Assembly: GCA_021904315.1 (NCBI GenBank)
Contig: CM038915.1
Location: forward strand, 2,108,001 to 2,172,000
Origin: Sphagnum magellanicum
Lineage: Eukaryota > Streptophyta > Sphagnopsida > Sphagnales > Sphagnaceae
DNA: 64,000 nucleotides
Direction: 5' to 3'
Shown: piece by piece, positions 19,337 to 55,300 of the stretch
Layout: each line of letters begins with the position of its first letter
Numbering within the stretch: the first letter of the stretch is position 1
Program-made: the position numbers and the translations under genes
Notes under the pieces: generated by a model
What the model was told of the DNA's origin: nothing
The model's input: only the letters and a program-made list of their open reading frames with translations
Databases searched by the model: none

Positions 19337-20528
19337 CTACACCCCAAATTGCAACTATTACACTTTTGACCTGCTCCTGCTTACAGCACTTGAAAGCATT
19401 TGAAATTTGATAAGCAACTACAGCACCACTTGATCCATGAATTTAGAACAATGGCAATCCCAAGCAAATCCTAAGAAATCAATTACTAGGACAAAATGGC
19501 CCAACAAGCCCAGCTGAAGGAACTTACAAAACTAGCAGTCATGTCAAAATTCCATGCTGTTATAAGACGACACAAAGACCATAATAAGCTCAAACAGCAT
19601 CCCATATCTCCTTGATACAGGTAGTGTCATAGATTCCATGATATGTTCAGTGTCATATATTCTATGATCTGCCCAAAATCATTCCTCTGTAAACTGCTGT
19701 CCATTTAGCTCAATTCTGTGGAAGTGGTAGGGATGCAAAAACCTGCACCAGTGGCACTCATAAAATTTGAGCTGTAAAAAATGTTGGATCCTTCGAGCCA
19801 AGAAAGCTGCCATAAACCATATGCCACCACAAAACTCTACAGTCCACACCAAGGAGTTAACTAACTGTTTCTTTGCAAGACCACAACAAACCCAAATGCT
19901 GCAGAAGCTCCTTTACCAAACTTAACCTCTACTCACCATTTTGGACAAAACTGGCCTGATAACCCATTGGAAGCTTGACTATCTATTTCTTATCATCATT
20001 CTCAGTGTTATACAAATTACATTGTAATCAGAAAGTTAAAAAAACTAGACATACTACAACTATGAACATGAAAGTCCTCGCACTTGAAGGCCACATGTTG
20101 CTCTCAAGCATACAATCTTTTTTCTTTCACACAAAGAGGGCCGAAAGTCCCTGACAAACATGTGCAGCTACAAATATCATACCCTGTTGCAAGTTGTTCA
20201 GATCTTCTCTCATCTTGCAACTGAGCCACAGGGAGTGAATCTTTAGACTAAACATTACCTAACAACACCGCCTAGAAACATAGAACTATTGTGAAAGTGA
20301 GATAAAGCTGTTTTTTCAAATAAAACCTGAAGCGGGGATAAAAACAATATGCAATTTGTATCTAGTTGATTTTTGACCCTGGGATGGTTGAATTTGGTGA
20401 GATTGTCGGTAAAACTTTGTTTCATTTTGAAGGACGAATTACTCTCATGTGATGAAAAGTTCACAAATTATTAGACCCCAAGCACGACTCACGTTCAGCC
20501 AAAATTTGCCTATTGCAGAAACGGAGTT

Positions 20529-20750
20529 TTGCACCCCAGAAACGTTGAATATCTGAAGTTTCAGAGTTTGGGAACACTTGAAAAAAGAATGGCAGACGAT
20601 GTACTAAAAAAATTCATATCTCTTGCAACGACAATTCAATCTTTTCAACAGCGTGGTCTTCGGCTTAGTACCTCAAAAACTGGACAAAAATCCAAGGAAT
20701 TTCAATCCAGCTCATGCAAAGGATTCAATCTGCACAAGCAAAGTGGTTAA
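20529..20750 (+). CDS. Small hypothetical frame, divergent from the HNL gene (left copy)
   Basis: An open frame of about 73 codons on the strand opposite to the HNL gene includes an ATG giving MADDVLKKFISLAT and a basic, Ser-rich tail. A plausible splice acceptor (TTGCCTATTGCAG) lies just upstream. The right arm keeps the same frame open (37362-37108). It matches no family I know. It could be an exon of a divergent transcript or chance openness in the HNL leader; with arms only a few percent apart, shared openness is weak evidence. Confidence 0.2.
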   Translation: MHPRNVEYLKFQSLGTLEKRMADDVLKKFISLATTIQSFQQRGLRLSTSKTGQKSKEFQSSSCKGFNLHKQSG

Positions 20751-21044
20751 ATGATTCAAGGTCCTTCAGCAACAAGACGGTAGTCAAACTTGTTCTGGAA
20801 TGTGATTGAACGAATTCCTCAACATCACTAGAACTCCGAGTGATACTGCAAAGTGAAGTACAGGACGGCCCGCCAATCTGCGCAAATCAAGCACAGGAAA
20901 AGATTTGATGACTCGGATCATACCATCCACAAGAGTGCAGTGTGATGAGACACAAGCCGACCAAACTAGTGTAGACATCATACACAAGATCTGATTTTGC
21001 AGATGCCAGATAAAGTTATATATATATGCAAGCGGATGGCATAC

Positions 21045-21092
21045 CAGGGCGATGGTGGTGGGCTTGGCCAACACTGCAGAGTACTGCCAGTC
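21045..21092 (-). CDS. Candidate second coding exon of the left HNL gene
   Basis: On the minus strand a 48-base stretch lies between an acceptor (CTGACAG) and a donor (GTATGC) and reads DWQYSAVLAKPTTIAL in phase 0. The right arm has the same exon with the same borders (36799-36846). It would splice in phase to the exon starting at 19336. No protein similarity supports it; it may be leader sequence. Confidence 0.35.
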
Positions 21093-21209
21093 CTGTCAGA
21101 GTAAAGAACCAACGAACAGCAACCCTTTCAACTACGGAGCAGATCCGATCTCGTGACGGTTGACCAGCGCATATTTCTCTCATGGGAGAAGAAGAACCAT
21201 CGACCTTAC

Positions 21210-21248
21210 AACAATATACCAAGTGGCTTTTTCCGTGGATGCTTCCAT
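21210..21248 (-). CDS. Candidate first coding exon of the left HNL gene
   Basis: On the minus strand, ATG at 21248 opens MEASTEKATWYIV and runs 39 bases to a GTAAGG donor in phase 0. The right arm has the identical peptide and donor (36643-36681). Joined in phase to 21092-21045 and 19336 onward, it would add 48 residues before the internal Met at 19279. This is an inference from splice signals and phase only. Confidence 0.35.
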
Positions 21249-21660
21249 TCGAGAGACGAAACAACGGGGGGAGAAAGATTGCCGATCTTCACTCTGCACA
21301 ACAAACTGCAGCCTAGAGCCCTGAAGCTCCCTATAGCGGGACCACTAGTCCTACGACCTCTACGGGGGGGGAAATAATGGTTCGCAAAGCAAGACACATG
21401 GGACTTCTGCAAACCTCAAAGAAACCCCCAACAGAAACTTATTACCAACATATTGCAGCATACATATGCAAGAACAAGCTTCACATCTCCAAATCCAAGC
21501 TCCACAATCTGTAGAGAAAAACAAACGGTGAGATAACAGGAGTGGACAGAGAAATCGAGCTGCCGACGCGAAAAACACAAAAGTGTGAAGAAATAGGAAC
21601 AAGTAAGACTATATAAATAGGTTTGTAGTATGTGCTACGAACAGAAGTGCAATTTCAAGT

Positions 21661-36231: not shown

Positions 36232-36642
36232 TCAAGAAATTGCACTTGTGTTGGTAGCACAAACTACAAACCGATTTATAGAGTCTTGGTTGTTCCTTTC
36301 TCTTCCCACTTTTGTGTTTTTTACGTGGGCAGCACGATTTCTCTGTCTACCCCTGTATTGTCACAGTTTTTTTTGTCTACAGATTGTGGAGCTTGGATTT
36401 GGAGATGTGAAGCTTGTTCTTGCATCTGTAGGCTGCAATATCTTGGTAATAAGTTTCTGTTGGGGGTTTCTTTGAAGTTTGCAGAAGTCCCATGTGTCTT
36501 GCTTTGCGGACCATTATTTTTCCCCCCGTAGAGGTCGTAGGACTAGTGGTCCCGCTCTAGGGAGCTTCAGGGCTCTACGCTGCAGTTTATTGTGCAGAGT
36601 GAAGATCGGCAATCTTTCTCCCCTTGTTGTTTCGTCTCTGGA

Positions 36643-36681
36643 ATGGAAGCATCCACGGAAAAAGCCACTTGGTATATTGTT
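36643..36681 (+). CDS. Candidate first coding exon of the right HNL gene
   Basis: ATG at 36643 opens MEASTEKATWYIV, followed by a GTAAGG donor in phase 0. Both the peptide and the donor are unchanged in the left arm. A 117-base intron would join it to 36799. Supported only by splice signals and phase. Confidence 0.35.
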
Positions 36682-36798
36682 GTAAGGTCGATAGTTCTTC
36701 GTCTCCCATGAGAGAAATGTGCGCTGGTCAAGCGTCACGAGATCGGATCTGTTCCGTAGTTAAAGGGGTTGCTGTTCGTTGGCTCTTTACTCTGACAG

Positions 36799-36846
36799 GA
36801 GTGGCAGTACTCTGGAGTGTTGGCCAAGCCCACCGCCATCGCCCTG
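36799..36846 (+). CDS. Candidate second coding exon of the right HNL gene
   Basis: Sixteen codons, EWQYSGVLAKPTAIAL, between a CTGACAG acceptor and a GTATGC donor, phase 0 on both sides. The left copy differs at three residues but keeps frame and borders. It would join in phase to the exon starting at 38496 across an intron of about 1.65 kb. Confidence 0.35.
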
Positions 36847-37107
36847 GTATGCCATCCGCTTGCACATATATATAATTTTTTCTGGCATCTGCAAAATCAG
36901 ATCTTGTGTATGATGTCTACACTAGTTTGGTCGGATTGTGTCTCATCACACTGCACTCTTGTGGATGGTATGATCCGAGTCATCAAATCTTCTCCTGTGC
37001 TTGATTTGCGCGGATTGGCGGGCCGTCCTGTACTTCACTTTGCAGTATCACTCGGAGTTCTAGTGATGTTGAGGAATTCGTTCAATCACATTCCAGAACA
37101 AGTTCGA

Positions 37108-37362
37108 CTACCGTCTTGTTGCTGAAGGACCTTGAATCATTTGGCCACTTTTCTTGTGCAGATTGAATCCTTTGCATGAGCTGGATTGAAATTCCTTGGA
37201 TTTTTGTCCAGTTTTTGAGGTACTAAGCCGAAGACCACGCTGTTGAAAAGATTGAAGTGTCGTTGCAAGAGATAGGAATTTTTTTAGTACATCGTCTGCC
37301 ATTCTTTTTTGAGGTGTTCCCAAACTCTGAAACTTCAGATATTCAACGTTTCTGGGGTGCAA
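37108..37362 (-). CDS. Small hypothetical frame, divergent from the HNL gene (right copy)
   Basis: About 84 codons on the minus strand, matching the left-arm frame at 20529-20750, with MADDVLKKFLSLAT and the same basic Ser-rich tail. A TTTTGCAG acceptor lies upstream. It extends slightly further than the left copy. No family recognised; it may be leader sequence of the HNL gene. Confidence 0.2.
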   Translation of the reverse strand: MHPRNVEYLKFQSLGTPQKRMADDVLKKFLSLATTLQSFQQRGLRLSTSKTGQKSKEFQSSSCKGFNLHKKSGQMIQGPSATRR

Positions 37363-38495
37363 AACTCCATTTCTGCAAAAGGCAATATTTGGCTGAACGT
37401 GGGTCTTGCTTGGGGTCTAATAATTTGTGAACTTTTCATCACATGAGAGTAATTCTTTCTTCAAAATGAAACAAAGGTTTACCGACAATCTCAGCAAATT
37501 CAACCACCCCAGCTAAATACAAATTGCATATTGTTTTTATCCCCGCTTCAGGTATTATTTGAAAAAAATGCTTTATCTGACTTTCACAGTAGTACTATGT
37601 TCCTAGGTGGTGTTGTTAGTTAATGTTCAGTCTAAAAATTGACTCCCTGTGGCTCAATTGCAAGATGAGAAAAGAGCTGAACAACTTGCAACAGGGTATG
37701 ATATTTATAGCTGCACATGTTTGGCGGGGACTTTCTATCCACTTTGTGTGAAAGAAAAAAAATTGTATGCTTGAGAGCAACATGTGGCCTTCAAGTGCGA
37801 GGACTTTCATGTTCATAGGTGTAGTATGTCTAGTTTTTTTAACTTTCTGATTACAATTTAATTTGTATAACACTGAGAATGATGACAAGGAATAGATAGT
37901 CAAGCTTCCAATGGGTTATCAGGCCAGTTTTTGTCCAAAATGGTGAGTAGAGGTTAAGTTTGGACAAGGAGCTTCTGCAGCATTTGGGTTTGTTGTAGTC
38001 TTGCAAAGAAACAGTTAGTTAACTCCTTGGTGTGGACTGTAGAGTTTTGTGGTGGCATATGGTTTATGGCAGCTTTCTTGGCTCCTGGGATCCAACATTT
38101 TGTAGAACTCAAATGTTATGAGTGCCACTGGTGCAGGTTTTTGCATTGCTACCACTTCCACAGAATTGAGCTAAATGGACAGCAGTTTACAGAGGAATGA
38201 TGTTGGGCAGATCATGGAATATATGACACTGAGCATATCATGGAATCTATGACACTACCCATATCAAGGAGATATGGGATGCTGTTTGAGCTTATGGTCT
38301 TTGTGTCATCTTATAACAGCATGCAATTTTGACATGACTGCTAGTTTTGTAAGTTCCTTTAGCCGGGCTTGTGATTGCCATTGTTCTAAATTCATGGATC
38401 AAGTGGTGCTGTAGTTGCTTTGCAAATTTCAAATGCTTACAAGTGCTGTAAGCAGGAGCAGGTCAAAAGTGTAATAGTTGCAATTTGGGGTGTAG

Positions 38496-41400
38496 AGTGA
38501 TTTGCCAGAGCATCAGCTATGGCCGCCTCCAGAAGACAAGAGATGGACCAGAATGGATGTCATTTTTTTCCATGGGTTTCAATTTGCTGGAGATGGCAGT
38601 ACTGATGCATGGAGGAGCACATGGACACAACGAGGTTGTGATGATGTATGTTGGGCTAAAGAATGGCTGCCCTTTGATTTGGGCGGAGATGTGCGTATTT
38701 TGTCAGTTTCATACAATGCACATGTTATAACCTCCCCTCATCATCATGTATCAGAGATTGCCCATAACCTATTCGAGACTCTCATCAAAAGGTGTGACTC
38801 CCTCTTTGTTTGCCAAAATGCCACACTGGAGCAAATGTGTCACTCAGAAATATATATCAAGCAAATAATTTCAGATCTGAAATTTATAACCTTAACATTG
38901 GTTCAACTATCAAAAGCTTAAAGGTTAGTATGGAGAGCAGCTCAGTACTTACCAATGGTAGCTATCAGGCAACTAATTTGAAATAGAGATGGAGTTTAAA
39001 AGACTTGTGAGAAATCACCATAGGAAATGAATGTATTGTGTGGGGGTGAGTGGAATCATACTTAGGTGTTTATAGGTGATAGTTTTGGGGGTTTGTGTTG
39101 AAAAGCTAGTTTGTTAAAGTGATGAGGACCTTGACCAATCCAAACCCTAGAAATGTTGTGAGCGGTCAGGTATGCAAATGTTTTTCTGTGGGAGATATGC
39201 CCTCCAGAAGATATTTCAATCCCAGGTATGTATAGGCAACTAATTTGAAATATTTGGCAGTTGAAATTTGGAATTTTATGGTGTTTAGAAGTTTTCAGAG
39301 AAATTATCATAGCAAGTGCATATGTTTTGTGCAGGTGTAAATGGGATTGTCCTATTGTGCTAATAGGCCATAGTTTTGGAGGATTGGTGTTGAAGAGCTT
39401 GGTTGTGGAGGCAAGGAAGATGTCAGGCATCAGATATGCCGAGGATGATTTAACCAGAGCTGCTGTGGATCATGCAAAAGCCTTCTTGAATAATGTGAGA
39501 GGGGTGGTCTTCTATGCAGTTCCACATGGGGGATCATACAATATTGCCAAGTATGTGAATGACTTGTTGAGATGCAATGACGAAGATCATGCTCGGATAA
39601 TGGAGAATGTCCAACCTTGTCAACGAGATATGGAAGAGTTATCAGAAGAATTTGAAAACTTTTTGAAGGAAAAGAAGGTCAATGTGTATGCTTTTGGTGA
39701 GGGCAAACCAACGAATGTGGTATGTATTTGCTATAAGAAATGCCCCTTTTCTATCAAATATCTTTGAGATTTACATGTTTGATATGTTGTAATGTGCAAT
39801 TTTGATTTGGTTGTGGGAGCAGGGAATTTTGGTTCATTTTTCTTCGGCACAACGATTAGCAGGAGGTAATTCTTACAATGTTGAGGATGCTAATCACATG
39901 GAGGTGTGCAAGCCTACAAGCCAAGACCATATTAGTTACACATTGCTTCTAAGATTTATTAAAGAGGTGAGTCTCCATAACCAAGCTAGTTTCATGTTTC
40001 ACTGTGATTGAAGCATTACTCTTCAAATTTGTAGGGTGGACATGGGACTTGATTGAGGTTGATGAATCTTGAATTTGTGAAGTGATTCCTAATGCTAATT
40101 TCTTAGTAAAGTGCATTAACATTTGAATGAGTGACGATGTAGTGTTGTTTCATCTATGAATGATAATGGGACTAACCCTTTTAAAACTGTATCTTGATTC
40201 TAAAGGTGGCAAGAGAAAATCATTATGAGGCTCATAACTTGTCTCAAGAAATCTTTGGCCTGGAGAGCTATGTGGAGAGGGTAGAAATGTTGCTCACCTC
40301 AGCAGGAAGTGATGCAAGTCCTCGCTATGTTGGAGTCGGGGGCATGGGCGGGGTTGGGAAAACACTTCTTCTTCAAAAAGTGTATGGGAGCCTGAAGGTG
40401 CGAGCTCATTTTCAAGGAGCAACATTTATTTGGCTCACTGTGGGGCAAACTCCTGACATATTGTCTCTCTATCGAAGCATAAGTGATGACATGGGTTCAA
40501 AACTACATTTGCATTCCAACATGGTGGATTACAAGCGAAAATTGGGAAGTGAGCTTACACAAAAAAGGGTGTTCTTGGTTTTGGATGATGTTTGGAAAGA
40601 TGAAGACTTTGATGCACTTGACTTAGGCAAGGGAGAGGGCAGTGTGACATTGTTGACCACCAGAATCAAGTCTATATTGCAGAGACCATGCATAAGCCAA
40701 GTGCATATGGAGAAGCTTTCACCAGAGGATAGTTGGAGCCTATTTTGTGTGCATGCATTTGGGACATCATCTAGTGTTCCACATGGATTAGAGGCATCGG
40801 CAAAGTCTATGGCTAAGGAGTGTGGAGGTCTTCCATTAGCTCTGAAGGTGATAGGTGCAGCAATGTTTGGAAAGACCTCAGTTGAACGGGAATGGAAGCC
40901 ACTACTCAAGAAGTTGAAGGAATCACGCATGCAGGAGAGAACTATGAAAAATGAATTGTATGAGCCCTTGAAGGTTGGCTATGATGTCCTGAAAGAGGCT
41001 GACCCTCGCTTGCAGGACTGTTTTACTTACTTTGCAGCATTTCCTGAAGATCATAAGGTGAAGTTTCAAGTTTTGCTTTGGTGTTGGATTGGAGAAGGGC
41101 TTGTTGAAGATGATTCTGAAGATGATCCTGAAGATGATGTATATAACTTGTTAATGAAATTGAGGAGGCGATCATTGATTGAGTCAATTGAAAAGTTAGA
41201 TGGAACTTCGGACGATGAGAGCGACCAAGACGAAATCGAAGAAGCAGTCTTCTATCGGCAAATGCTTTTAAATGGGGAGTTGGATGAAGATTCTTCCGAG
41301 TTGGATGAAGATTCTTCCGAGTTGGATGAAGTGTTTTTGCATGAAGAAGAGTTGGATGAAGAGTTGGATGAAGAAGAGTTGGATGAAGAGTTGGATGAAG

Positions 41401-42629
41401 AGTCAGATGAAAAGTCGGATGAAGAGTCAGATGAAGACTTGTATGAAAAGTTTGATGAAGAGGTTTTCCCACAGTACACCAAGGTACATGATGTGATGAG
41501 AGACTTGGCTTTCTACATACTACGAATTGATGGTGGCACAACCCCTGCAAAACAGCTTGCTCTTTATCAAGCAGGTCAAAATTTGACAGAGTTTCCTCCA
41601 AAGTGGATAACTGAATGTAAGCAACCTCTTAAAGCTCGCAGATTATCATTATGCCAAAACCAATTGGAGACACTCCCTTCAACGTTTTGTGCACCTGAGC
41701 TGCTGACATTACTACTTGGTAACAACAGGATATCTGATGTGCCAGCAGGTTTCCTGAAGGGCATTCAAAATCTAAGGGTTCTGGATCTATCTTATGGAGA
41801 GTTTCAGTATCTGCCTGAGGAACTTGGTAATCTCAAGCATTTGGTTTATCTTAACCTGTCACATAATTCTTATCTGCGAGAATTACCAGAGTCAATAGAA
41901 AATTTACGAATGTTAAAGAATCTCACTCTATCAAATTGTACCAGGTTGAGATATCTCCCTTCTGGAGTGGTTGGCTTACAATCACTTCAAGTTTTAGACA
42001 TGCGGTTATGTAGGTCTTTGAGATGGGCAGAACATACTCACATAGAAATGGGTCCATGTCACATAGATATGGCAGAGTCTTTTAGTGATGAAGCTGAAGC
42101 AAAAGGAGTTTCCTTGGAAAACATATCTGGGCTCAAGGTTCTCACACACCTTCATATTGAAGGAGAGAAATTTCAACATGTGCTATTGCCTGGCAATATA
42201 TCTGCACTCACAAAGCTTGAAGACTTGAGGTTATATCGTTTTCCCCACCTCATAACCTTGCCAGCTTGGTTGCCAGATTTCAAAGAACTTAGAAGTCTTT
42301 CTGTAACTCTGTGTGATTGTTTAGAAAGGCTTCCAGGTTCTTTCACACATCGAGGTGCTTTTCCAGCTCTTATAGAGTTCAAGTTACAAGACTGTATTAA
42401 TTTTGTCGAATTTCCAGAGGTGGAGGGAGGTGCTATCCCTAAGTTGCAAACACTTATTCTCTATAACTGTGAGTCTCTTGAAAGCTTACCTCTCTCTCTA
42501 GAAGTCTTAACAAACTTGAGGAACTTGGATCTGCGGTGGTGTACAGGTGATCTTAAAAGGTCTTGTAGGAAAAATAGGGAGAATTCCCTGATTTGGAGGA
42601 GCTTTAGAATCAGGTTTTCAAAATTTTAG
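38496..42629 (+). CDS. Hydrolase-NB-ARC-LRR immune receptor (HNL class), right copy
   Basis: Supported exons: 38496-38791, 39335-39719, 39823-39966, 40206-42629; GT-AG borders, phases 2, 0 and 0, stop TAG at 42627. From the first in-frame ATG (38553) it gives 1063 residues. Residues 1-256 are a SERAC1-like alpha/beta-hydrolase: DVIFFHG near the start, nucleophile Ser93 in GHSFGG, AVPHGGS (141-147), probable catalytic His233 in ANHMEVCKP. The NB-ARC has P-loop GMGGVGKT (302-309), kinase-2 VFLVLDDVW (378-386), TTR (407-409), GGLPLAL (463-469), a CFTYFAAFPED stretch, and VHD (683-685). About 340 residues of LRR follow. An acidic block (587-676) precedes the VHD. An in-frame stop (38493) right before the first exon, and coding-like residues SDLPEHQLWPPP ahead of the Met, suggest that an upstream exon supplies the true start. 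Compared with the left copy it has an extra 17 residues in the LRR and three more at the C-terminus. No break is seen. Confidence 0.9.
41196..41465 (+). repeat. Acidic repeat block inside the right HNL gene
   Basis: Encodes 90 residues with repeated EDSSELD, ELDE and ESDE units, made of about 12- to 15-bp DNA repeats. It is 18 codons longer than the left block, always in multiples of three. It separates the winged-helix core from the VHD motif. The long minus-strand frames at 41023-41601 are shadows of it. Confidence 0.9.
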
Positions 42630-43499
42630 TAGTTGTAGATAGATGGGTTTTGAAGTTTGAGATCAACCTTATGATTTGGGTGTTGAGGTAGATAGTAGAA
42701 TTTTCACCTAGAGATGTTTACTCTCTAGGTTTGTGGACCAGAAATACAAAACCACATTGTTGGACTGAAACAGTGCCTGCAATATGTCATACTTGGTTGT
42801 TCATGCTTCTTGACTTTTACTGCCTTTTTTAATCTAAAACTATGCTTGGTTTTCAATATTTTCAAAGCATTCAAACATTATTGATTAAAAAATACAATCT
42901 AACTCTACAAATATGTTTCATTGCATTGTTCATTAGCAAAGAGGGTACAAAGTCCAAGACTAAATTTCATAATAATCAAAATATAATAAGGTCTATTTGA
43001 ACCTACTAACACAAAATGTCATGTTGTTACATAAGCCTCAAAATGATCAAGTTAAGTAAGTGGTTTGTGGTTTGTTCATACTTTGTTACATAATCTAGTG
43101 ACAATAAAGAAGATAATTTGCCAATATTAAGGTATTGTAATTTCTAATACACTTGCTTAGTATTATAATGTAAACTATTATGGTATATACCCTCTTCCAT
43201 CAAAATGTGCACGAAAACTTTGATGGATTGTATAAAAGTTATATTGTTCATGAATGATATTAAAACATAACACATCTAGTTTTACACCTTGTATGATTTT
43301 AGTGATGTTGCGAAGGTTTTGATGCCATATGTATCCCTTCAATCATAAACTTTAGCTCCTATTTTATACCTTCATGTACATAAGAATACCATGGTTGAGA
43401 AAGAACAATAATTGTTAAGAAAACTTACATTTTACTCTTACAAAGAGATAAAAAGAGTGCATTAAAAATTTGGAGGCCACCATTTCAACAATGTTTATC
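42630..43499. other. Non-coding DNA 3' of the right HNL gene
   Basis: Matches the left arm from 15282 downwards to about 14420. No gene is seen, and no unambiguous poly(A) signal close to the stop codon. Confidence 0.6.
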
Positions 43500-43504
43500 T
43501 CCAT

Positions 43505-44502
43505 TGTCGCAACCCTAGCTTTGGGCTCGTGACCAAGGCTAAGGGGGTTGTAAGGTTGCGGGCCAAGAGGAAGGAAGCCCGGGAGTCAAGGCAAAGGCAT
43601 TAAAAGAGTGCGGGCCAAGAGGAAACCCGGGAGTTAAGGCAAGAGGAAGCCCGGGAGTCACATCACATACTCCCGGGAGTGTTAGAAAGTGTGAGGGAGT
43701 GTGAGGGAGTGAACACTCACACTCCCAAGGCAACTCCCACTTTGGGAGATGGAGTCCTGGTGGACTCCCGAAACTTCAGAGAGCGATTGCAGGGGTCAAA
43801 ACTCAATGGCTCGTGGCGTCCTTTTTATCATTGGAAAGCTCTTGGAGCGTAGATGTCTAAAATGGGCTCGCTTGGCTCATTTGAACATCTGAAACACAAG
43901 TTATGGCCAAATGAAGGGCCGGGAGTCGAATTGCCAGTTTGACCCCGACCACAAAAAGTTGGGAATCGACCTCTTCCCAAAGTCCGATTCGGGAGTGCGA
44001 CACGGCGTTGAAAAGCTCTCGACGAGAGCTACAACTTTGCTTAGGACCGCATCGCGATCCGAGGTCTGCTCGCAAAGTTATGGGGCTCCAAAGTCTCGGG
44101 AGTCCCATTTGGCGTGATTTCGGGACTCCCACTCGGGAGTCCCGGGAAAAATAGCCATTTGGATGTGGGCTCCGTGGAGAGTGACAGAGTATACTATAAG
44201 GGGGAAGGTGGTGGCTTCCCCCAAGTCCAGGCCATGGTGAGTCTTGTGTGTCTGTGTTGCCCGTGGCTCGTCCTAGCACCAAGGGTGCTCCAACTTTACA
44301 CTAACCCCTTTGTGTGGGTTGTGTGTAGGCCCGTGTGAGTGACTAAAGCTTGTCAACTCTTCCTAGTCCCATCCCGGAGCTCCAACACACCCCTCTACCC
44401 CTCAAAGTGTTGTGAGCTAGGGAGCGTGCTCCGACTCCTCCTTTTCCACTGTTTTTTACTTGGGCTCACATTTGAACCCTTTAAGGAGTTGGGAATGTGT
44501 CA
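43505..44502 (+). mobile_element. Solo LTR of an LTR retrotransposon (998 bp)
   Basis: Starts TGTCGCAACCCTAGC and ends GGAATGTGTCA, with TCCAT directly repeated at 43500-43504 and 44503-44507. The left arm has the empty site: ATCTCCATGGCATAG appears there once without the element. It is therefore a clear insertion that happened after the arms duplicated. It is the same family as 252-1166 and holds a TATA-like AGTATACTATAAGGGGG. It is richer in GC than its surroundings. No internal retrotransposon region is present, so it is a solo LTR fossil. The 141-codon frame inside it (44282-43857) is not taken as a gene. Confidence 0.92.
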
Positions 44503-44507
44503 TCCAT

Positions 44508-47500
44508 GGCATTTGTTCACGACAATCTACAAGCATTAAGAAGATTTATCAAGTGTTGGGATAGCCATGCTAAATTAGGCATTTCAAATTGCAAAAACCT
44601 TTTTATATTAATAAGGTCACGTAAACAATGAGAAAATTTGGAATGGCACAAAAACTCATACATGTATGTGACGCTTATAGGTAAGGGAAGAGGGAGATCA
44701 AAAGGATAAAAGATAGGTTACCAAGATGGAACCTAATGTTAACAATTGGCATGAACCGCAAGTCATGCGTGTTTATGGATGGTATACTGGTGAGTGTTGG
44801 GTCACATATTTTGCCAAGTGAACAACAACCACCAACATATCATGCAAGATGGACAATACATGGATTGGAAACACTTTTTCATTTCATTCCTATTCCATAG
44901 CTAACCATGATGGTCAACTATATACTAATGAATATAGGTACCTGTTTAATACCCACCCATCACCCTACCTACCAAGTAACAACTTCCATTCATTACATAT
45001 ATATTAATGGTACCTACTTGACTACCTTTTAACTACCAGTGTTGGAAGGGTAATAAGAATCCCCCAACATTATATGTGCACATAGTTGGTATTGTTGGGG
45101 GAAGAACGAGGCACTAAAAGGACTATCAAACGAGGTTGTGTTTCGGGTTTCCTTCATTGATGTGCAAGTTTGCTGCTGGGTTGAAACGGACATATTCCTT
45201 TTGGTGAAGGTTTGCTTGGGTTGTGGGTGTTCTTATGGTTAGGAGGTAACAAAGTAAGGTATATATTATCATTGAGACATGCCATGTCATTTTTTAACAT
45301 AAACTCCTATGACTTGGATCTGTGTCAGTAGAAACTTTTGATGATTAAGCCCTAACCATAGGAAGTGATGCGATAACCCAAACGAATGAAGTACTGGGTT
45401 GATGGATGTAGTGCTAGAAAATGCTAACAGAGAGGACGGTTGGCAATCATTCATGTTATAGGAGCCACATTTGGCTTCTTGATGTCTTTGCTATTTTTGT
45501 GTTTTTTTTTTCATTTGCAAGTTATGAGATTTGGTTTGTTGTTCTTCATGGAATGTTGACGCCTAGATCAAAAGCTGGTGATGGAATGTTGCATCCTGGA
45601 TTTTCTTAATTGGTGTGATGCAGGATTTGTTCAAGGGAGTAAAGAAAACGCCTAGTGAAGGAAGGAAATAAATACATGGCAATGAAGAAAGCTAAGCAAG
45701 CTGGTTTTTTTACTCAAATTTTTTCTTCAATTTGGTCTGTTTGAGTTGGAAGCTTTTAGGAGGAATGCTTAAAGCTTGGATTCTAAATAGTTTGCTCATG
45801 TTTGCTTTAGGATTTTCCACTACGCTAAAATTGGAGAGTAGAGTGTTTTAGAAGTCGATATGTCGGTACAGTTTTAGGATGGAAGTGATGAAAGGCTCAA
45901 GGGGGTTGTATGGACTAGCCTTAGTGGGATTCTTACTCAAGTTGAACGTGCTTGAGATAGTTGGGGAGGAGGCATGTGAAAGACTAAATACTTGAATGCT
46001 TGGGAGCTCCAAGGAAGTTTTCTATAGCTAAAAGTAACTGGGAAGATCTTAAGATGTTGCAGACATTACTTGTTCATATCTTTTCCATCTCCATACCTAC
46101 ATTTTTGTTGGGATTCTAGGAATGTTGTGTGTAAAATTCATTTCTTGATAGTCCACAAAGAAAGGAATCTAAAACGTGCTCATCCATCAAGGTCTTTAGA
46201 ATCATTTTGTTATTAGGTTATAAGAAAATATATTGCTCTTGCACATTAGTTGTGTGTTTTCAAGGCTTTCCTGTAATGACATATGCATACATTATTTTGT
46301 TGTGACAATTTAACATACATATTTGAATGTCATACTCCTTTTTTGGTGACACTCCTTTATGGATTGGTTTTAATTAGATGATTGAACTGTTACATGCAAT
46401 GCATGTTAAAAGAGATGCATGTGACATGGGGCTTGCAACATATTGCATGAACCATTTCAATGATGCCTATTACATGGGGCATGAAACATATGACATGAAC
46501 CATTGCCATATCATATGATATGGCATAACACATGGCTTATATTTCATGACACATTGGGGATGTATACATGTATGCACATATGCACATGTGCATATATGTG
46601 TGCCATATGACACATGGCATAGAAGGGTGGCGAAAATTCAAATTCACCTACTCTCACAAGCCTACCTATCACCTCCTTTCAACAAGGAGCCTTAATTAAG
46701 GTTTTTTTGGGTATACTCTTCCCAACAATGGTGTTCTCAGAAGCTTGAAAGTGTAGGCAAAGTTTTCTGATTTTGAATGGATCAAAAGTTGTGGGTAATG
46801 TAGTTTAAGGTGTAGAATCATGATTGCTAAGGAGGACAAATTGTGCAACCTAACAACACAATCAAGAAAAGAAAGCTAGAATTCACACACAAAGAAGGTG
46901 GGTTCAAGTTGTTATTTTCTCAAATTTTCAACACTTCAAATGACATGGACCTCACTTGATTTGTATCTTGCATTTGTAAATAAAGATGTATGTATAATGC
47001 TTGAACTCATTATAAATTTTAATGTTTTCTCTAATTTGCATTTTGTTGTAGGAGTTTATTGCAATTGAGTTGTTGGAATAGAATTAACAGATTTTGACAA
47101 CACCCCCTTTGGTTCAAGTATGACAACCACAACACAATTTACAAGTTCATGGTGCATGTGATTGTCTTTCTAAGTAGGTAGTAGATTATAGTAAATTTAG
47201 GGCATCAAAAAAACAAATTGTATCACATGCTTAGGACAACAAGTAGAAAGGCATTAGGTATGTAGCTCAAATGAAGGTTCAAACTTCATAAGGGTAGGAA
47301 GCACCTAGATATAATTTCTTCAAACAAAAAGTGGAAAGAGGGGGTAGGGACAATTTTTTTTTTTAATCCATTGGAGTTGGGTCAATGTTCTTTTGAGAAA
47401 CATATTCCCAATAATTTGGTGCAACTTGAATTTTAGTGGACATGTTTAGAAAGAAAACACACATTCATATCAAGCTTTAAAGGGAAACTACAAAGACCTT

Positions 47501-47934
47501 CAAGCCTTTTTTTAACCTTGAGGCATTAGTCACCTTATGTAATTTATTTTTACCATAATCCAAGAGGAAGGACTAAAGTGGAGGGGGTGGAAGGAAGATT
47601 TGTTTTTTGATTATCCATTGGAGTTTGGGTGTATATGTTTTTGGGCAACACTTGTTGATGTCCTTTCTTTTAGTTTCCTTTATTTTGTCTTTTCACTTTC
47701 ATGCAAATGAACCTAATTGAAAATGGCACTTTGGTGACTTTGGCATTTTGTTAATTATTACTATTTGGAATGTCAAACAACCTTTGATATACATACATTG
47801 TGAAACAAAACCCATCCTAAACTAGATGTATTGAAAAGGAAGGTCACAATTTATATTTTGATAACCAAAAGTCTATGTATCATGAATTGCTAATACAATG
47901 TACATTTATTAAATATTGAAGTTAAATTGTCATT
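44508..47934. other. Non-coding DNA of the right arm
   Basis: Counterpart of about 10914-14320 in the left arm. It contains the 22-bp palindrome at 46504-46525 and a dispersed-repeat core near 44765-44800. A CACATATGCACATGTGCATAT-like expansion near 46573-46600 is absent from the left arm. No gene recognised. Confidence 0.6.
46504..46525. repeat. Perfect 22-bp palindrome (right copy)
   Basis: Same perfect palindrome, half-site TGCCATATCAT, as at 12292-12313. It has survived unchanged in both arms although neighbouring bases differ. Confidence 0.85.
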
Positions 47935-50900
47935 TTGAAGAAACTTGGTGTAAGTACAAAAGTGGGGGCGATAGATGGCCTCACCAACATTATTACCTAT
48001 TACATAAACCGAAAGGAAGGGGGGTGGGTTCAACAAACAATGTTGATAAGAATCTACATAGAAATGAAAATGGAGGTAACTACAAGTTGTGTACAAGATG
48101 AAAAAAAGAAACATGATGCTTTTGTTTGTGTGTATTGCAAGCGAAATTTTTCTGGCAAGTTGCGCATCAATGACCATGAGATTCAAGGTTGTCCAAATGG
48201 CCCTTTGGATGTAAATGGGATAAAAATTCCCCTCCTTGTGTACTTGAACTTGCAACATGCACAACAATTCAAGGATTTCAAAAATAAACTTGGAGGCATT
48301 ACATATGATCTTATGGAAAAATATTGGAAGGTTGAAGAGCTTTTCCATGAACTTAACACATAATTTTGAAAGTAGAAGAAGCCAAACTAGGATGATTCAA
48401 TAGAGGTTAGGGCTTCCAAGGAACCGGCATTGGCATCTGGTCTTCAATTGTTTCAAGCTAGTGTGGGTGTTAAATGGAATGCTTGAATACTAAAATTATA
48501 ATCACATCATGTGGTTCAACCAAAGTGAATGCACCAATTGTGAAATGGAATGTGCATGATGTCACATCAAATGATGATATTTTTTAGGATCTAAACATTC
48601 CAACAACAAATCAACTATAGTTTATTCAACCAATTGCATAATCCATCACACAACTTCAATAGAAAACAAGAAAACAAACCAAAGTGCATTATCCATCTAA
48701 CATTGACATATTTACTGATACCTTAAATGAGCCAACAGTGACTATTGGTTTGCGACAAGTAATTAAAAATACTCCCCACAGTTTTTTAGGCCCATCATTG
48801 AGACATGTTAATTCAATAAAGAAGTTGAAACTTGTTCTTCACCCTATTGTGATGATTCAAAATGTGCCAAATATTAATCGGTTTTATGAATCACTTCAAA
48901 ATATAGCAAAGGCGAAAGAGGAATTTCACAAGTAGGTCTTGAAGGAGGTAAATGGTTTGGTTGTTATACCATGGCCCCAACCTCAACCTATTAAACATTT
49001 TAGGGTGCACTTGGACTTTTTTACTTGTTGGAGTGTGGATTTTTACCTTATGATGTTTATGGTGGTGACTTGGTTGGGTTCAAAAAAGAAGTCTGAAAAT
49101 GGAAGGAGTCCCCAACTTGGTGGTCCCAATTGATGTGTGCTTATGATGTGTTTTCCCTTCTTGACCACCAATTGAATAAAATACATCATGCCACAAATTG
49201 GGTGCCATTTATAACATACAAAAAGCTTAAACCCCTCATTTCATGTGCATGACACATCTACATGTACCTACAAATTTGATTTGGTTTTGAAAAAATATGC
49301 TTAATTAATCTTTGCATTTTTAATGCATGTAATTTGTAATGCATTTGCACTTCAAAATTAAATTTTATTTATGACCTATGTGGTTAGGTGCATGTTATGG
49401 TCTTAACATTTGCATACTTCGGTTTTTTATTTTTTTCATGACGGCCCACCCACACATCACACGAGTGATTGCAAATTTGGTGGTCATGGCAACGACTAAG
49501 GTGCAAAACCCGAATTCAAAGACCATGAACTACAACACTTATGTGCATATGTTCAAACACATTGGTGTTCAAATTGCAAAAGAAGACCTCATGTGACAAT
49601 GGAATGTTCAACGAGAAGATATGGTGCAAGACATTGTCACAAAAAAAGTTAACGAATTTGATCACAAAATGTACCCTTGGATTTTTTGAATCAAATGGGA
49701 ATGACATCCTTTTCACCATTTCTTGATTACTAGTCGCAATTTGTGGAACAATTTGCATGTGCTCTCTTTGCAACATAATGTTACAGAAGGACTTTTCATG
49801 TAATCAACTCTTTGATCAATGGCACTATGTAGCATAATTTTCCGAGTGCCTTGGAGTGTTCTATACATTTGGGTTTTTTTGCAATTATCATCTTTGAAAG
49901 ACCCAATTATCACATGTCCATATGATGGTGGCATGAGGGATAACATCCATCAATGGCTTGGAAACAAGTCTTCGCATGTGTATTGGGATTTAGCATGTAT
50001 GTATTCGAAGGAAGATGGTTATATCACGTATGTTGCTGCAAGAAAGGGCAATTCAATAGAAAAATAGGTTGCTAAAATTGAGGATCAATGGGAGCTTTTA
50101 AAGTCCCCAACAAAAGAATGGTGGGCAGAACTAGAACAATGGTTTGTTTCTGTGCAAGCTCGTGCTTTGCAAGATATGGCCTTCAATGATTCCATCCACT
50201 TTATGATGGGTTGGACCCAATGTGATCAACTTGCTATTGAGGAACCACCAATTATGAACATTTACAAGTGGTTAAATAGGAAAGAAAATCTTGATGTTGG
50301 CTAGACCCATGCAAAGTATGTATGTTTTACTTTTTCATGTATCAAAGTTTTAAAAATAAAATTATATTCTTACAAAATTGGTAACATTGTTCTTGTTATT
50401 AACAATTATTAATAACATTCATTCCTATTTTGCAAAAAAATAATTTGTAGATGTGGGTTATATCATTGATTGTCACATGGTGTACATGCATGTTTGCAAA
50501 TTTAATGCATGCCTTTGAGGTTATCAATAAAGTGCGATCTGTTAATGAATCCATTAACCACAATTCAATTGTCCAACATAAGGTTGGCTTTTGTGATGTT
50601 CAAATAGGGTGCCACCAACCAAAAGTGGACAATGCATTTGGCCCATTTGATATGCCAACCACTTCAACCATTCTAAAATGTTTGCAGAAGATTACCTTGG
50701 ATGTTGTAATTGATTCAGCAAATGGGGAACATGGTGAACAATCCAATGACATCTTTTAGGCTGTTAATTATGTTGTTCAAGGGACCTCGAACTATAATTC
50801 TAATCAAACCATTAAATTTGTTACAAATACAAGATGGTGACAAGATGTTGCCCATATTTGGGTCATCTATAGTATATGGCACACACACTACCAATACCCA

Positions 50901-50960
50901 TAGAGAGTTAATCAAATGGGCTTGTAGCCCACTAGAGGCTATTATCTGAAATCTCAAATT
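47935..50960 (+). pseudogene. Unrecognised coding relic with BED-like zinc finger (right copy)
   Basis: Open segments at about 47935-48363, 48684-48935, 48939-49133, 49378-49596, 49819-50300 and 50451-50949 read as pieces of one protein. The first carries a CVYC...H...C finger (C2HC, 12 and 4 residue gaps) followed by GCPNGPLDVNG. Later pieces carry NVPNINRFYESLQNIAKAKEEF, YDGGMRDNIHQW, WDLACMYSKEDGY and VGFCDVQIGCHQPK. A GTATGT donor and TTTGTAG acceptor bound a short interval (about 50317-50450) that looks like a real intron. Stops between segments (for example TAG at about 48933 and 50065) are shared with the left copy, so decay predates duplication. Family not recognised; it may derive from a DNA transposon. 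Confidence 0.5.
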
Positions 50961-52381
50961 AACCATGGACAATGCATATGACCCAATCACCCCCTACCCA
51001 TGTCCAGATTCAACAAATATTCCATCTCCACTAGTTAACCCACTATGAAGCATGGGACCCGCACATGCCCAACTTGGTTTCAATTCAATAAGGGAAATGT
51101 TTTCCACATGTTCCCAACTTAGCAATCTTGTTTCAAAGGTGGGAAAACCTTGTGATAAAGACAATGCTTTGTATAGCCTAACAAAACAATTGTGGTAATC
51201 TTTCATTTTATAAACAATACCCAAATTTATGTTGTGTTGTGATTTTAACAATGCCTACACATCTTAAATCGATAACTTAATCAATAATGTATGGTTTGTT
51301 GATTATTAAACACAATTAATTTTTATTTTAAAAATTTTGCAATTAATCATCTATGATAAACATTTTAAAGTAATTTTACAACAATTATGAGAATTAATGT
51401 TATGTTTAGAAAATTATTTTATTTATAGTTAATATTACCAAGAGAAAAAAATTATTTGACCTACAATAATTTTTACACTAATAAATGTAATTATATAGTA
51501 AGTAATGTAATTAATTGAATATTATTGTGTAAAAAATTACTTTTTAATATCAATTGTTAGTTCAGTATTTATAATTTTTAAAGAAATATTTAAAATAGTT
51601 AGTTTTTAAATTATAATAATTAAATTAATGTTACATGAATTATTGTATATATAATTTGATTAGATTTTTAAAAGTAATAAAAAGTTTTAAAATATTTTAG
51701 TTATTTAATTATTTATGAGTTATGTATTAATAACTTGTGAGTAATTAGATAGCTAGTTTGATATATATTAAGTAGGTAGGTGGGTATGTAACTTAGGTTT
51801 GTAGGCACCTACTTATGTACCTACCAACCTAATATTAATATTTTTGTATTAAATTATTTTTTAAATGACATGTGGCATGTTTACATTGGGCCATGTGTCA
51901 CAATATAAGATCATCCAAACATTTGTTGAATGTCTTAATGTTTTTCAAAATAATAATATTTCAAATAATCAAATATTGGGACACATGCCAACACATCATT
52001 TGTTTTCAATTGTGACCAAAATATTTATATTTTAATCACATGTGACAATACATATACAATGGAGTCAAAGGATGAATTTGTATTTGTTGACTTTTTTTTT
52101 CATTCAATATATTTTTTCATTTATGACTAATTTATCGCATGTGACTTGTCCTAGGTGACTAAGGAGATTTTAGTTGCAAAATGTCACTTGTGACTAAAAT
52201 TTAATCATAAAAACTGGTAAAAAATTCATGTTTTCTTCAAATGCATGCACCTCTTTCAAATGTTTGGTTAACAAACATTTGACATAATGTGCAACAATAT
52301 AAGTGCTAACTTTACACTTCCATTTCGACCCAACCTTCATCAATTTTTTGTCCTTCTGATTCATATTAGGTGAACAAGGGT
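50961..52381. other. AT-rich outer end of the right arm
   Basis: Matches 5934-7860 of the left arm minus its 540-bp segment. Contains a GGTA-rich tract (51765-51830) and no gene. Confidence 0.6.
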
Positions 52382-55300
52382 GTGCGGGTGGCTGAAAGGC
52401 CTGGTTGGTTTCAAGTTTGACACCTAAACCAAAATATATTTTAAAAAATCATTAGATTGTAATAAAAAAATCCTACCCTTAAAACTTTACACATAAAAAG
52501 TTCAAAAAAAAAAATGCAAGTATTGCAAAACATAAAATCACACAATCAAATGCAAATCCTATAAACTTTAATTATTTTCAAGTATTGCAATAAAAAAATT
52601 TCAACAAAAAATATCTTACAACTTCCATCCAATGATGGAAGGTGCGGACATAATTAAATTAAAAAAAAGTTGTACAATTTTTTTTATTTGCATTTAATTT
52701 AATGTATGTAAATTCTAAAAAAATCTAACCCACCATTTTTCAATTGAAATTCCTAATATATATTGGGAGTGATATCATCATTTGAATTGCAGATTGTCAC
52801 CGTTGTCAACTCTAAACCACATAGATTACTTGATTCATCAATTTTCAATTATAATGAAACAACATTTTGTTCCCCAGGTTTCAATTATGATGGAGCAACA
52901 TTTTGCTCTCCAAGTCTTGGTTGTAATGGACCAACATTTTGCTTCTTAATTGTCAGTTTTGATGAAGCAACATTTTGGTTTTGAGCTTCCAAATCATCAC
53001 CACCTTTCTTTAGTTTCCTTCTTCTAGCCATTACAACTTTCAACATTAAAAGAAACCACCATGTCATTGTTAATTGTCAATCTAATGAACTAGACCAAAA
53101 GGACCATAGAAAAAGAAGACAAAAAAAGGTTTTGCTTGTTACCATCGCCCATTGCCTTTTTCACAACACCATCGAAAAATATGATGATAATTGTTCTCGC
53201 CTTTTTTTGCAGCAAAGCCATTGAAAAAGGTGATAGAAGTTGTTGTCGTCTTCTTCTTTTCAAACACAAAGAAAACAAAACATGCAAGGAAACAACAAAA
53301 AAAAAAACAAAGAGAAGGGAGGGAGCTTACCTTAAAGCTCTTGCTCTACCTTCTCACTTTTGGCTCTTGTTTTTGCCCTCCCGCTTGTGCCCTTCCATTT
53401 CAAGTGCTTTCTCTTGGTTGCCACTTCTGCCCTCTTGCTTCTGGCTCCTAGTTCTACCCTCCTTCTTTTGCCCTCCGGCTTCAAGCTCTCCCAAGCTTTG
53501 ACAATGGAGTGAGCGCAAAATGAGGTGAGGTAAGTAGGTAGGAGGCAAAAACTTTGGGGCAAAGAAGAGGCTAAAAAACCAAAAACCTTCGGCAGGGGAG
53601 GATGTGTTTTTGGTTCATCCTCAAAATGGCTTGAACGGCCTCATCCTGAACTGGTGCACTGGTGGCTGCTGGTTCACTCCAGCCACTAGGCAATCCCTGT
53701 GCAAAGGGACTTTGGTGGCCAATTGTGCCACGCAAGTGCTAACTCGGCAAGCTTGACAGAAACAGGCCTGTTTCTTGACATAAATAACAGGTTCAATATG
53801 GTGTAAAATATCAGGTAAACTCCAGGAACAGCGGAATTCGCTTTGATGGCCAATTCAGCCTATTAAATCAGACCACAAGGGATGGCCAAATCAAACCGCC
53901 CCCCCCACCCCTGATGTATGCATTTTTCAAAAGGTCATATCACTTGGAGGACAATGTTCAGTGTATCCTTTAGGCAGGTTGAAGGTTCACCATTTCAATG
54001 CCAATTTTCTTTGTTCCAATGTTGATTTCAACACATTTCAATTCCAAGCTGTCTGACAGTGTGACAGCAAAGGAAGGATGCCAAACTGTTGGCTGCACAG
54101 TTTCCTTTGGTGTATCTTGACTCTCAGGTATATGAGTTAGTTTGCTGCCGCACTGTCGCCTGGATAGAGCTTGTAAGGGGGGTATTTTGCATCTTTTGTT
54201 TGGTTGGGGTTCCCCAACAATAAAGCTACATTTATTAAAGGGAAGAGGAACCAGTTACTGAGTCAGGAAGTGCCGACAGTTTGGGGCTGATGATAGGGCA
54301 ACCATGAAGAGATGCTGGGTGGCAGCTTATTAAGAGCACAGCAATTCTGCTTGGGTTCTTAAACTTTGGCATTCTGGAAGCTTCAATTTTGGAGCGAAGA
54401 GCTGAGGCTGGTGAGGGTTTTTAGATAGGTTGCTGGTGGGCAGAGTGTGAAGGTGATGAGGATAGATAGCTGATTAGAACTTAGGAGCTCACACATTGGG
54501 TAGCAGTATGCGTACGTACAATGCATGACGGTGTATAGAAGGAAGGACTCGATCAAGTAATTTGGATGGATTGAGCAGGGACGCTTTGTATCACTTCAAG
54601 TTCCAATTTTTGTAATAGAGGATTTACTTCTTTTGAAGCACTCTATGCAGGATGGTGAGTTTGCAGAGTGTACCTACAGTGCTACTGATGAGTTCAGAAG
54701 AACTTCTGCCGCACATCTGATCACATTAGATTTCTATAGGTTGCACCTGATCAATGTGGGTATTGAGTGATTGATACCGAAGCCTAGGGAATTAGATTGT
54801 GACTGTTGGTTGATGCCAGTCATGTCGGTCTGGTATATAGGCTTGTGTTTGGTATCAACATTGGTACCAATACTGTTAGCACTTGGACCCAACCAGACTG
54901 GTATGACCTGAGGCAATATTAGCTAGCTTGAGACCAGTACCAACCTGGTAGCGTAGGGACCTGAGGTAGTACCACCAGCCTTCTAGTAATTTTCTTACCA
55001 GTTTCAATATGAGAGATATATACCTTCCTCATACCAGCCAAGAATCTTCAGTCTTGGACCCAATACTAAGACCAGACTGGCATTGGGAAGTTTTCAAGAG
55101 TACCCAACTTACTGGGATCAGCTGTTATGTTCAAAAGTTGATACCAGACCAACATTGGTTGACACATACTCAATTGAGTATTATAAGTAGGATTCTGGTG
55201 TTACCTTGTTTGCAACTTGTTGCTAGCATGCTGCAACTGGGAGTGACTGAGGGTGATCAGCTAAGACCACGACCAGATCAGTAAGATCTAGATGATGAGG

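What the first reader, a model, noticed from the sequence alone, without database searches (positions are those of the whole stretch)
38496..42629. Intact hydrolase-NB-ARC-LRR (HNL) receptor
A SERAC1-like serine hydrolase with its GHSFGG nucleophile and late histidine intact is spliced in phase to a full NB-ARC and LRR. Most plant NLRs carry TIR, CC or RPW8 domains; hydrolase-headed ones form a small class described from liverworts. Preserved catalytic residues in both copies suggest that enzyme activity matters.
Basis: partly seen in the sequence, partly recalled or inferred. Interest (0 to 1): 0.8.

Follow-up and report, generated by a model that had tools for sequence, protein, structure and literature searches.

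The report
Moss immune receptor with enzyme head
A peat-moss disease-resistance-type receptor carries what looks like an intact ester-cutting enzyme where flowering-plant receptors usually carry other signalling parts; the kind is already described, but this one has its enzyme mounted on a different type of receptor body from the one that defined the class.

Summary
At 38334-42629 (+) lies an uninterrupted hydrolase-NB-ARC-LRR gene. A second intact copy (1052 aa) lies on the minus strand in an inverted duplication; a third lies 45 kb downstream. Assembly size fits Sphagnum divinum. The class is neither small nor liverwort-only: 76 of the 125 listed NB-ARC hits in this genome have a hydrolase motif upstream, and Sphagnum hydrolase-NLRs are in print (Chia 2024). 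The window gene mixes two known classes: its head has phase-0 introns as in the HNL class, but its NB-ARC-LRR body is CC-NLR type (branch 100/100) in a single exon. Other heads sit on TIR-type bodies; one read from a cluster with Cys for Ser has a divergent NB-ARC body with no LRR found. Bacterial relatives carry the head on STAND or other bodies. Ser/Cys, Glu and His are kept in 22 of 22 moss heads examined (20 paralogues picked by me) and 6 of 6 bacterial ones. Most likely a ligand-gated esterase/lipase receptor causing cell death; catalysis and expression are untested.

The parts
   Evidence: five-codon exon with consensus donor in 16 of 16 group-a loci; pattern found none in the 6 other loci
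38496..38791 (+). coding exon 2, hydrolase N-terminal part with the FHGF oxyanion-hole-like region; ends in phase 2
   Evidence: junction phase 2 best in 21 of 22 loci with phases left free
38989..39114 (+). decayed partial copy of exon 3 (nucleophile-elbow region) inside intron 2
   Evidence: 72% identity over 129 columns to 39278-39406
39335..39719 (+). coding exon 3, GHSFGG nucleophile Ser117 and FGEG acid Glu226; ends in phase 0
39823..39966 (+). coding exon 4, EDANHMEVCKP with catalytic-type His257; ends in phase 0
40206..42629 (+). coding exon 5, CC-NLR-type NB-ARC (GMGGVGKT, LVLDDVW, GLPL, CFTYFAAFPED, VHDVM) plus LRR in one exon; stop at 42627-42629
41200..41470 (+). acidic Asp/Glu-rich insertion just before the VHD (MHD-type) motif, seen in the three chromosome-9 copies
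   Evidence: 52 Asp/Glu in a 120-aa segment; absent in the three other group-a copies printed
15283..19542 (-). second intact copy (exons 19542-19528, 19336-19041, 18490-18106, 18001-17858, 17601-15283; 1052 aa)
5930..21656 (.). left arm of the inverted duplication that carries copy A
   Evidence: matches the right arm in reverse in three pieces at 92.3%, 96.1% and 94.2%
36236..52385 (.). right arm of the inverted duplication that carries copy B

Best explanation
An intact plant STAND immune receptor whose output domain is an alpha/beta-hydrolase (serine esterase/lipase type) instead of a coiled coil or TIR. Shown by sequence: head with Ser, Glu and His in register, CC-NLR-type nucleotide switch, LRR. 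Inferred: in the resting ADP state the LRR and winged helix hold the head apart; a pathogen cue at the LRR (or at the acidic insertion) allows nucleotide exchange; subunits assemble into a resistosome-like ring; the heads, brought together, become active on an acyl or ester substrate, perhaps a membrane lipid or a lipid-like second messenger, and trigger ion leakage and cell death. Also inferred: the gene is a chimera in which a hydrolase cassette of the HNL kind, flanked by phase-0 introns, replaced the coiled coil of a CC-NLR.
For: Open spliced frame in both window copies. Ser (21) or Cys (1), Glu and His in 22 of 22 moss heads examined and Ser, Glu, His in 6 of 6 bacterial relatives. Head dN/dS 0.37-0.51 against LRR 1.28-1.82 among the three close copies. 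NB-ARC closest to solved CC/RPW8 receptors (At5g04720 9.6e-32, NRC1 1.1e-31, RPP13-like 4 2e-31; best TIR type, so named by recall, 6.3e-16) and on the CC side of a 100/100 branch. All 9 of 9 A1 heads match the PADLOC model DUF626_VIII, best 2.4e-12. Same head joined to a region annotated NB-ARC plus WD40 in Gloeothece and to AAA_35 in Nostoc. Two Marchantia hydrolase heads cause HR-like death and ion leakage in Nicotiana (PMC11218826, passages).
Against: No transcript, enzyme assay or substrate. Pfam hydrolase matches of the window head stay below curated cut-offs (DUF676 14.1 bits against 20.3) and no convincing solved relative is found by sequence. The spliced moss head could not be folded here. 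The dN/dS contrast rests on few changes (head versus LRR Fisher p 0.014, 0.094 and 0.137, uncorrected, pairs not independent; head versus NB-ARC 0.15, 0.07, 0.22) and is weak across nine group-a copies (medians 0.53 head, 0.59 NB-ARC, 0.70 LRR). For the cassette: with phases left free the junction before the NB-ARC scores best at phase 1 in 10 and phase 2 in 1 of 22 loci (margins 0-16), and group-a heads are not resolved as one clade.
Confidence: 0.62

Rival explanations
1. EDS1-like or GID1-like scaffold: the head keeps the hydrolase fold and triad residues but works by binding a ligand or partner, not by catalysis.
For: Plant immune lipase-like proteins (EDS1, PAD4) and the gibberellin receptor GID1 work this way (recalled); a gibberellin receptor is among the weak fold matches of the bacterial relative. 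The Ser is Cys at the 9 sites of the chromosome-2 cluster that one search lists, and the elbow Gly is Ala in 3 of 5 group-b heads examined.
Against: Glu and His, as well as Ser, are kept in all 16 group-a heads examined and in 6 bacterial ones; Cys is itself a usable nucleophile (recalled, dienelactone hydrolase).
Confidence: 0.22
2. Integrated decoy: the hydrolase mimics a host lipase targeted by pathogens and acts as bait, not as output.
For: NLR integrated domains are expanded in Sphagnum (PMC11218826, passage).
Against: The head is at the N terminus in the place of the usual output domain, a head motif stands upstream of 76 of 125 listed NB-ARC hits, and isolated Marchantia heads cause cell death.
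Confidence: 0.08
3. Not a working gene: intact frames but silent, recently duplicated copies on the way to decay.
For: No expression data; a decayed exon copy in intron 2; 4 of 16 group-a loci examined have a cut-short last exon.
Against: Both window copies and the third copy are open across all five exons while head dN/dS stays near 0.4-0.5.
Confidence: 0.08

Closest known systems
Sphagnum hydrolase-NLRs nested in the CC/RPW8 clade (Chia et al. 2024, PMC11218826; passages read, supplements not held)
   Same: same genus, alpha/beta-hydrolase head, NB-ARC of CC/RPW8 type
   Different: no gene-level description of head introns, mini-exon, triad or acidic insertion in the passages read; identity of their loci with these not testable here
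HNL class of Marchantia (Xue et al. 2012, PMC3352924; passages read)
   Same: N-terminal alpha/beta-hydrolase, a phase-0 intron inside the hydrolase and one before the NB-ARC, LRR (whether the inner intron is at the same residue was not testable)
   Different: NB-ARC near TNL/PNL and a further intron behind the NBS in that class; here the NB-ARC is CC type and lies in one exon with the LRR; an extra phase-2 intron and a mini-exon here
CC-NLRs of the same genome (L001, L002, L004, L005, L008)
   Same: NB-ARC lineage and motifs
   Different: no hydrolase; N-terminal region in the same open frame as the NB-ARC. The CC label is mine, from starts such as MVEPL that resemble the published MAEPL motif; no domain search was made
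Bacterial hydrolase-headed proteins (Gloeothece L064, Nostoc L065, Enterobacter L066, Lelliottia L067, L061, L062); PADLOC DUF626_VIII
   Same: homologous head with Ser, Glu and His in register at the N terminus; some next to defence-type or mobile genes
   Different: 19-31% identity in the pairs computed (25-28% to the window head); bodies are WD40-STAND, AAA_35 or unassigned; descent of the plant genes from them is not shown
SERAC1/DUF676 serine esterases
   Same: GHSxGG elbow and weak DUF676 match in 9 of 9 heads (best 1e-4)
   Different: window head below the DUF676 cut-off; SERAC1 itself not compared here

Membership tests
HNL class (Xue et al. 2012) | N-terminal alpha/beta-hydrolase domain fused to NBS-LRR | tested here: met
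   hydrolase identity rests on triad register, PADLOC and sub-threshold DUF676 matches and the weak fold matches of a bacterial relative
HNL class (Xue et al. 2012) | phase-0 intron inside the hydrolase and phase-0 intron between hydrolase and NBS | tested here: met
   for the window gene: both phase 0 with clear margins. Across loci: inner junction phase 0 in 22 of 22; junction before the NB-ARC phase 0 in 11 of 22 (window copies, third copy, 5 of 5 group b, three more), phase 1 in 10, phase 2 in 1, margins 0-16 in the last eleven
HNL class (Xue et al. 2012) | intron behind the NBS domain | tested here: not met
   NB-ARC and LRR share one exon in both window copies (12 of 16 group-a loci, the other 4 cut short); the 5 group-b loci end the NB-ARC exon at 353-398 aa without LRR motif
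HNL class (Xue et al. 2012) | NB-ARC closer to TNL/PNL than to CNL | tested here: not met
   PNL not included in the tree
CC-NLR (CNL) | CC-type NB-ARC (LDDVW kinase-2, CF..FAAFPED RNBS-D; motif names recalled) | tested here: met
CC-NLR (CNL) | N-terminal coiled coil | tested here: not met
   the exons spliced ahead of the NB-ARC encode the hydrolase
Sphagnum Hyd-NLR subclade in CC/RPW8 (Chia 2024) | Sphagnum hydrolase-NLR with NB-ARC inside the CC/RPW8 clade | tested here: met
   genome size 438,994,042 against 439 Mb for S. divinum, species inferred; tree. Their own sequences were not compared
DUF676/SERAC1 serine esterase | Pfam DUF676 above curated cut-off | tested here: not met
   14.1 bits against 20.3; 9 of 9 members match at E up to 0.1
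catalytically active serine hydrolase | Ser-acid-His in catalytic geometry | tested here: inconclusive
expressed NLR immune receptor | spliced transcript and cell-death activity | not testable with these tools
   no RNA data

The most novel reading that the evidence does not exclude
The hydrolase head is an ancient immune effector enzyme, as TIR is: an exon cassette that has been mounted on at least three different nucleotide-switch bodies in one plant genome (CC-type NB-ARC-LRR, TIR-type NB-ARC-LRR, and a divergent NB-ARC body without LRR that carries a Cys nucleophile) and on STAND bodies in cyanobacteria. If so, peat mosses run much of their intracellular immunity through an unknown acyl or ester chemistry, and the head, not the body, sets the output.
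Probability: 0.35. Interest if true: 0.75.

Novelty: new member of a known kind. Interest (0 to 1): 0.42.

Why it matters
Plant NLR outputs with known biochemistry are ion channels (CC, RPW8) and NAD-cleaving TIRs. An esterase-type head would be a further chemistry, and here the same head occurs on a CC-type and on a TIR-type body in one genome. That natural swap lets one ask directly whether the head alone fixes the output and whether each body still needs the helpers its own class uses.

Tried and rejected
A long upstream coding exon: looked for in conserved upstream blocks (the output was cut, so part of the alignment was not seen), only the mini-exon found. Asp three residues before the His as the acid: kept in moss but E in Gloeothece and P in Lelliottia, whereas the Glu is kept in all. 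Single-sequence fold of a bacterial relative: poor (pLDDT 44); a mixed alignment with separate window exons was misaligned and not used. More relatives from viral contigs: none in the one scan made. Paper searches for DUF626 and for a retron link showed nothing relevant in the listings; that DUF626_VIII belongs to retron type VIII is recalled only. The gene-model script fixed the intron phases and rejected stops, so the phases and the 'no stop in the head' are partly built in; phases were repeated free. I picked the 20 paralogous loci by hand, mostly from hits without stops, so 22 of 22 is not a random sample. In the NB-ARC tree L040_C12 and L054_C2 were left out (20 of 22 loci kept), two kept rows are short, and the tool warned of a long branch (L006). 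The head tree has no non-NLR eukaryotic hydrolase, so one or two captures cannot be told apart, and it does not resolve group-a heads as one clade (one side of a branch in 17% of bootstrap trees).
Full report
WHAT IS THERE. The window is G000:C9:2108001-2172000 of a 438,994,042-base assembly. A published table gives 439 Mb for Sphagnum divinum (PMC13120521, passage), so that peat moss is the likely source; the label is inferred. At 38334-42629 (+) five coding exons join in phase: 38334-38348, 38496-38791, 39335-39719, 39823-39966 and 40206-42629, giving 1087 residues without an inner stop. The minus-strand copy (exons from 19542 down to 15283) is open too, 1052 residues, and so is a third copy outside the window (DNA match C9:2195253-2199635), 1132 residues.

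THE MISSED FIRST EXON. In most paralogues the same point is preceded by a sequence such as TTTTGGTGGCAG, a splice acceptor. Upstream, 16 of 16 group-a loci (window copies included) have ATG plus four codons followed by GTAAGT or GTGAGT: MTASF, MPASF, MAASS and variants. My search pattern fixed the five-codon length and a short list of donors, but the aligned upstream regions show the exon as well. In the three chromosome-9 copies the pattern also gave one other match further upstream; in the 6 non-group-a loci it found none. Residues become Ser117, Glu226 and His257.

THE HEAD. Pfam gives only sub-threshold alpha/beta-hydrolase matches for the window head (DUF676 14.1 bits against 20.3), though 9 of 9 aligned heads touch DUF676. 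The clearest library match is PADLOC DUF626_VIII: 1e-10 for the window head, 9 of 9 heads, best 2.4e-12. No convincing solved structure is found by sequence. In 22 of 22 moss heads examined the elbow Ser (Cys in one), a Glu after the YAF strand and the His of EDANH are kept; the 20 paralogues were picked by me, mostly from hits without stops. The same three positions are kept in six bacterial relatives at 19-31% identity. The other acidic candidate, Asp three before the His, is not kept in all of them, so Glu226 is the likelier partner. A model of the bacterial relative L061, from three sequences, reaches pLDDT 63.9 and pTM 0.72, with the Glu (residue 197) in strand 191-198. Its 50 listed solved matches are mostly serine hydrolases, esterases and thioesterases, weak by TM-score (0.26-0.42 by query length).

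THE BODY. The last exon holds NB-ARC and LRR. By sequence its NB-ARC is nearest to solved CC and RPW8 receptors (At5g04720 9.6e-32, NRC1 1.1e-31, RPP13-like 4, i.e. ZAR1 by recall, 2e-31), with the best TIR-type receptor (7crb, type by recall) at 6.3e-16. A second group of hydrolase heads in this genome (C8, C1, C14, C11 and another C9 locus) is the opposite: for the C8 copy, the one tested, Roq1, a TIR receptor, scores 3e-35, while rows named as RPW8 or CC receptors start at 1.1e-11. In a tree of 28 NB-ARCs one branch at 100/100 parts 5 group-b bodies plus 2 NB-ARCs lying beside TIR hits from 15 group-a bodies plus 5 CC-NLRs (label mine) and one unassigned NL. Group-b exons end after the NB-ARC (353-398 aa, no LRR motif in that exon, 5 of 5). 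In 12 of 16 group-a loci, both window copies among them, LRR motifs are in the same exon; the other four are cut short.

A CHIMERA OF TWO CLASSES. Xue et al. 2012 (PMC3352924, passages) define HNL by a phase-0 intron inside the hydrolase, a phase-0 intron before the NBS, a further intron behind it, and an NBS close to TNL and PNL; CNLs lack a conserved intron between CC and NBS. The window gene has the two head introns but neither body feature. With phases left free, the inner junction is phase 0 in 22 of 22 loci, and the junction before the NB-ARC is phase 0 in 11 (window copies and third copy by margins of 30-31, 5 of 5 group b, three more), but phase 1 in 10 and phase 2 in 1 of the remaining group-a loci, by margins of 0-16; at 9 of those 11 the phase-0 donor reads GTGAGT. 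The simplest reading is a hydrolase cassette moved on to a CC-NLR body at a phase-0 intron. Chia et al. 2024 report a minor subclade of Sphagnum hydrolase-NLRs inside the CC/RPW8 clade and take it as a hint of independent acquisition (PMC11218826, passages); this gene fits that subclade. In the head tree group b plus L054 is a supported set (98/98) and bacteria stand apart (100/100), but group-a heads are not resolved as one clade (17% of bootstrap trees). Without non-NLR plant hydrolases one capture with later transfer cannot be told from two captures.

HOW COMMON. Degenerate searches for the elbow found HSFGG 58 (control 5), YSFGG 144 (control 4) and HCFGG 22 (control 0). Using 58, 100 of the 144, and 22 of these, 76 of 180 sites have one of the 125 listed NB-ARC hits 0.3-3.5 kb downstream on the same strand, 76 different NB-ARCs; shifting the sites gives 5, 4 or 3. 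The NB-ARC list is itself 125 scored of 380 candidates, so the share is for the best-scored ones. None of the 22 HCFGG sites has a listed NB-ARC downstream. The one read, L054, is followed by divergent NB-ARC pieces (Pfam 4e-4, below cut-off, and 9.3e-7) and no LRR match in the frame scanned.

SELECTION. Among the three chromosome-9 copies the head has dN/dS 0.37, 0.45 and 0.51, NB-ARC 0.92-1.52, LRR 1.28-1.82. The counts are small: head against LRR Fisher p = 0.014, 0.094, 0.137, head against NB-ARC 0.15, 0.07, 0.22, uncorrected and not independent. Across 36 pairs of nine group-a copies the medians are 0.53, 0.59 and 0.70, a weaker contrast. The direction is what a fixed output domain and a changing sensor would give. 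The three copies also share an acidic insertion just before the VHD motif, absent in the three other group-a copies printed.

BACTERIAL KIN. The single scan of bacterial and archaeal genomes gave three relatives: proteins with the head at the N terminus and long bodies that Pfam leaves unassigned apart from an HTH/PIN-type match in L062; L062 lies in a stretch with a phage-type integrase and a VapE-like gene, L063 beside a retron-type RT-Toprim gene. Plasmid records add, among 6 records matching the window head, Nostoc (head plus AAA_35) and Lelliottia (head plus a sub-threshold AAA_16 match), and, among 20 records matching the Grimontia head, Gloeothece, where head, a region annotated NB-ARC and WD40 repeats form one 1411-aa protein. 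So an N-terminal hydrolase of this family over a STAND switch also exists in cyanobacteria. Alpha/beta-hydrolases are also among the four largest effector families of fungal NLRs (PMC9815663, passage).

MECHANISM. Shown: intact gene, conserved catalytic positions, CC-type switch, LRR. Reported for relatives: two Marchantia heads cause HR-like death and ion leakage in Nicotiana (PMC11218826, passages; no catalytic mutants of hydrolases appear in the passages seen). Inferred: ligand-driven oligomer, activation of the esterase, cell death. The main rival is an EDS1- or GID1-like non-catalytic scaffold.

NOVELTY. Hydrolase-NLRs of liverworts, Sphagnum and Ceratodon are in print. I saw no description of the Cys-nucleophile cluster, of the cassette on two bodies as read here, or of the bacterial kinship in the listings and the passages read; these cover only the open PMC library, and Xue et al. 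already propose exon shuffling for the HNL class. The window gene is a good, intact member of a known kind with an informative body.

Noticed in passing
G000:C2:26208393-26628372 (L054 = C2:26204500-26213000): Cluster of hydrolase heads in which the nucleophile Ser is replaced by Cys (GHCFGG) at the 9 of 9 heads that one search lists there; the one read (L054) has a divergent NB-ARC body with no LRR found. 13 further HCFGG sites elsewhere.
   Followed up: partly
G000 ends of C2, C6, C7, C10, C11, C12, C13: Similar fragments of the hydrolase exon 2 with one or two stops lie within about 51 kb of contig ends, as if part of a subtelomeric repeat.
   Followed up: no
5930-21656 and 36236-52385: Inverted duplication with a spacer of about 14.6 kb; the half that holds the receptor gene is more diverged (92.3%) than the outer part (96.1%, 94.2%).
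   Followed up: partly
41200-41470: Acidic Asp/Glu tract before the VHD motif makes the segment 102, 120 and 156 residues long in the three chromosome-9 copies, where three other copies printed have roughly 35-40.
   Followed up: partly
38989-39114: Decayed copy of the nucleophile-elbow part of exon 3 inside intron 2 (72%).
   Followed up: partly
41023-41628 (-) and 16224-16775 (+): Long antisense open frames opposite the acidic repeat; very likely a by-product of its codon pattern, not genes.
   Followed up: no
L063:2138-3886 (-): A bacterial relative of the head (start of frame not clear) lies beside a retron-type RT-Toprim gene (PADLOC RT-Toprim_I-C 4e-226).
   Followed up: partly
26736-27645: Array of diverged direct repeats (73-76%) in the spacer of the inverted duplication.
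   Followed up: no
261-1109 and 43640-44493: Inverted 73% copies, one just downstream of the receptor gene; probably a dispersed repeat.
   Followed up: no
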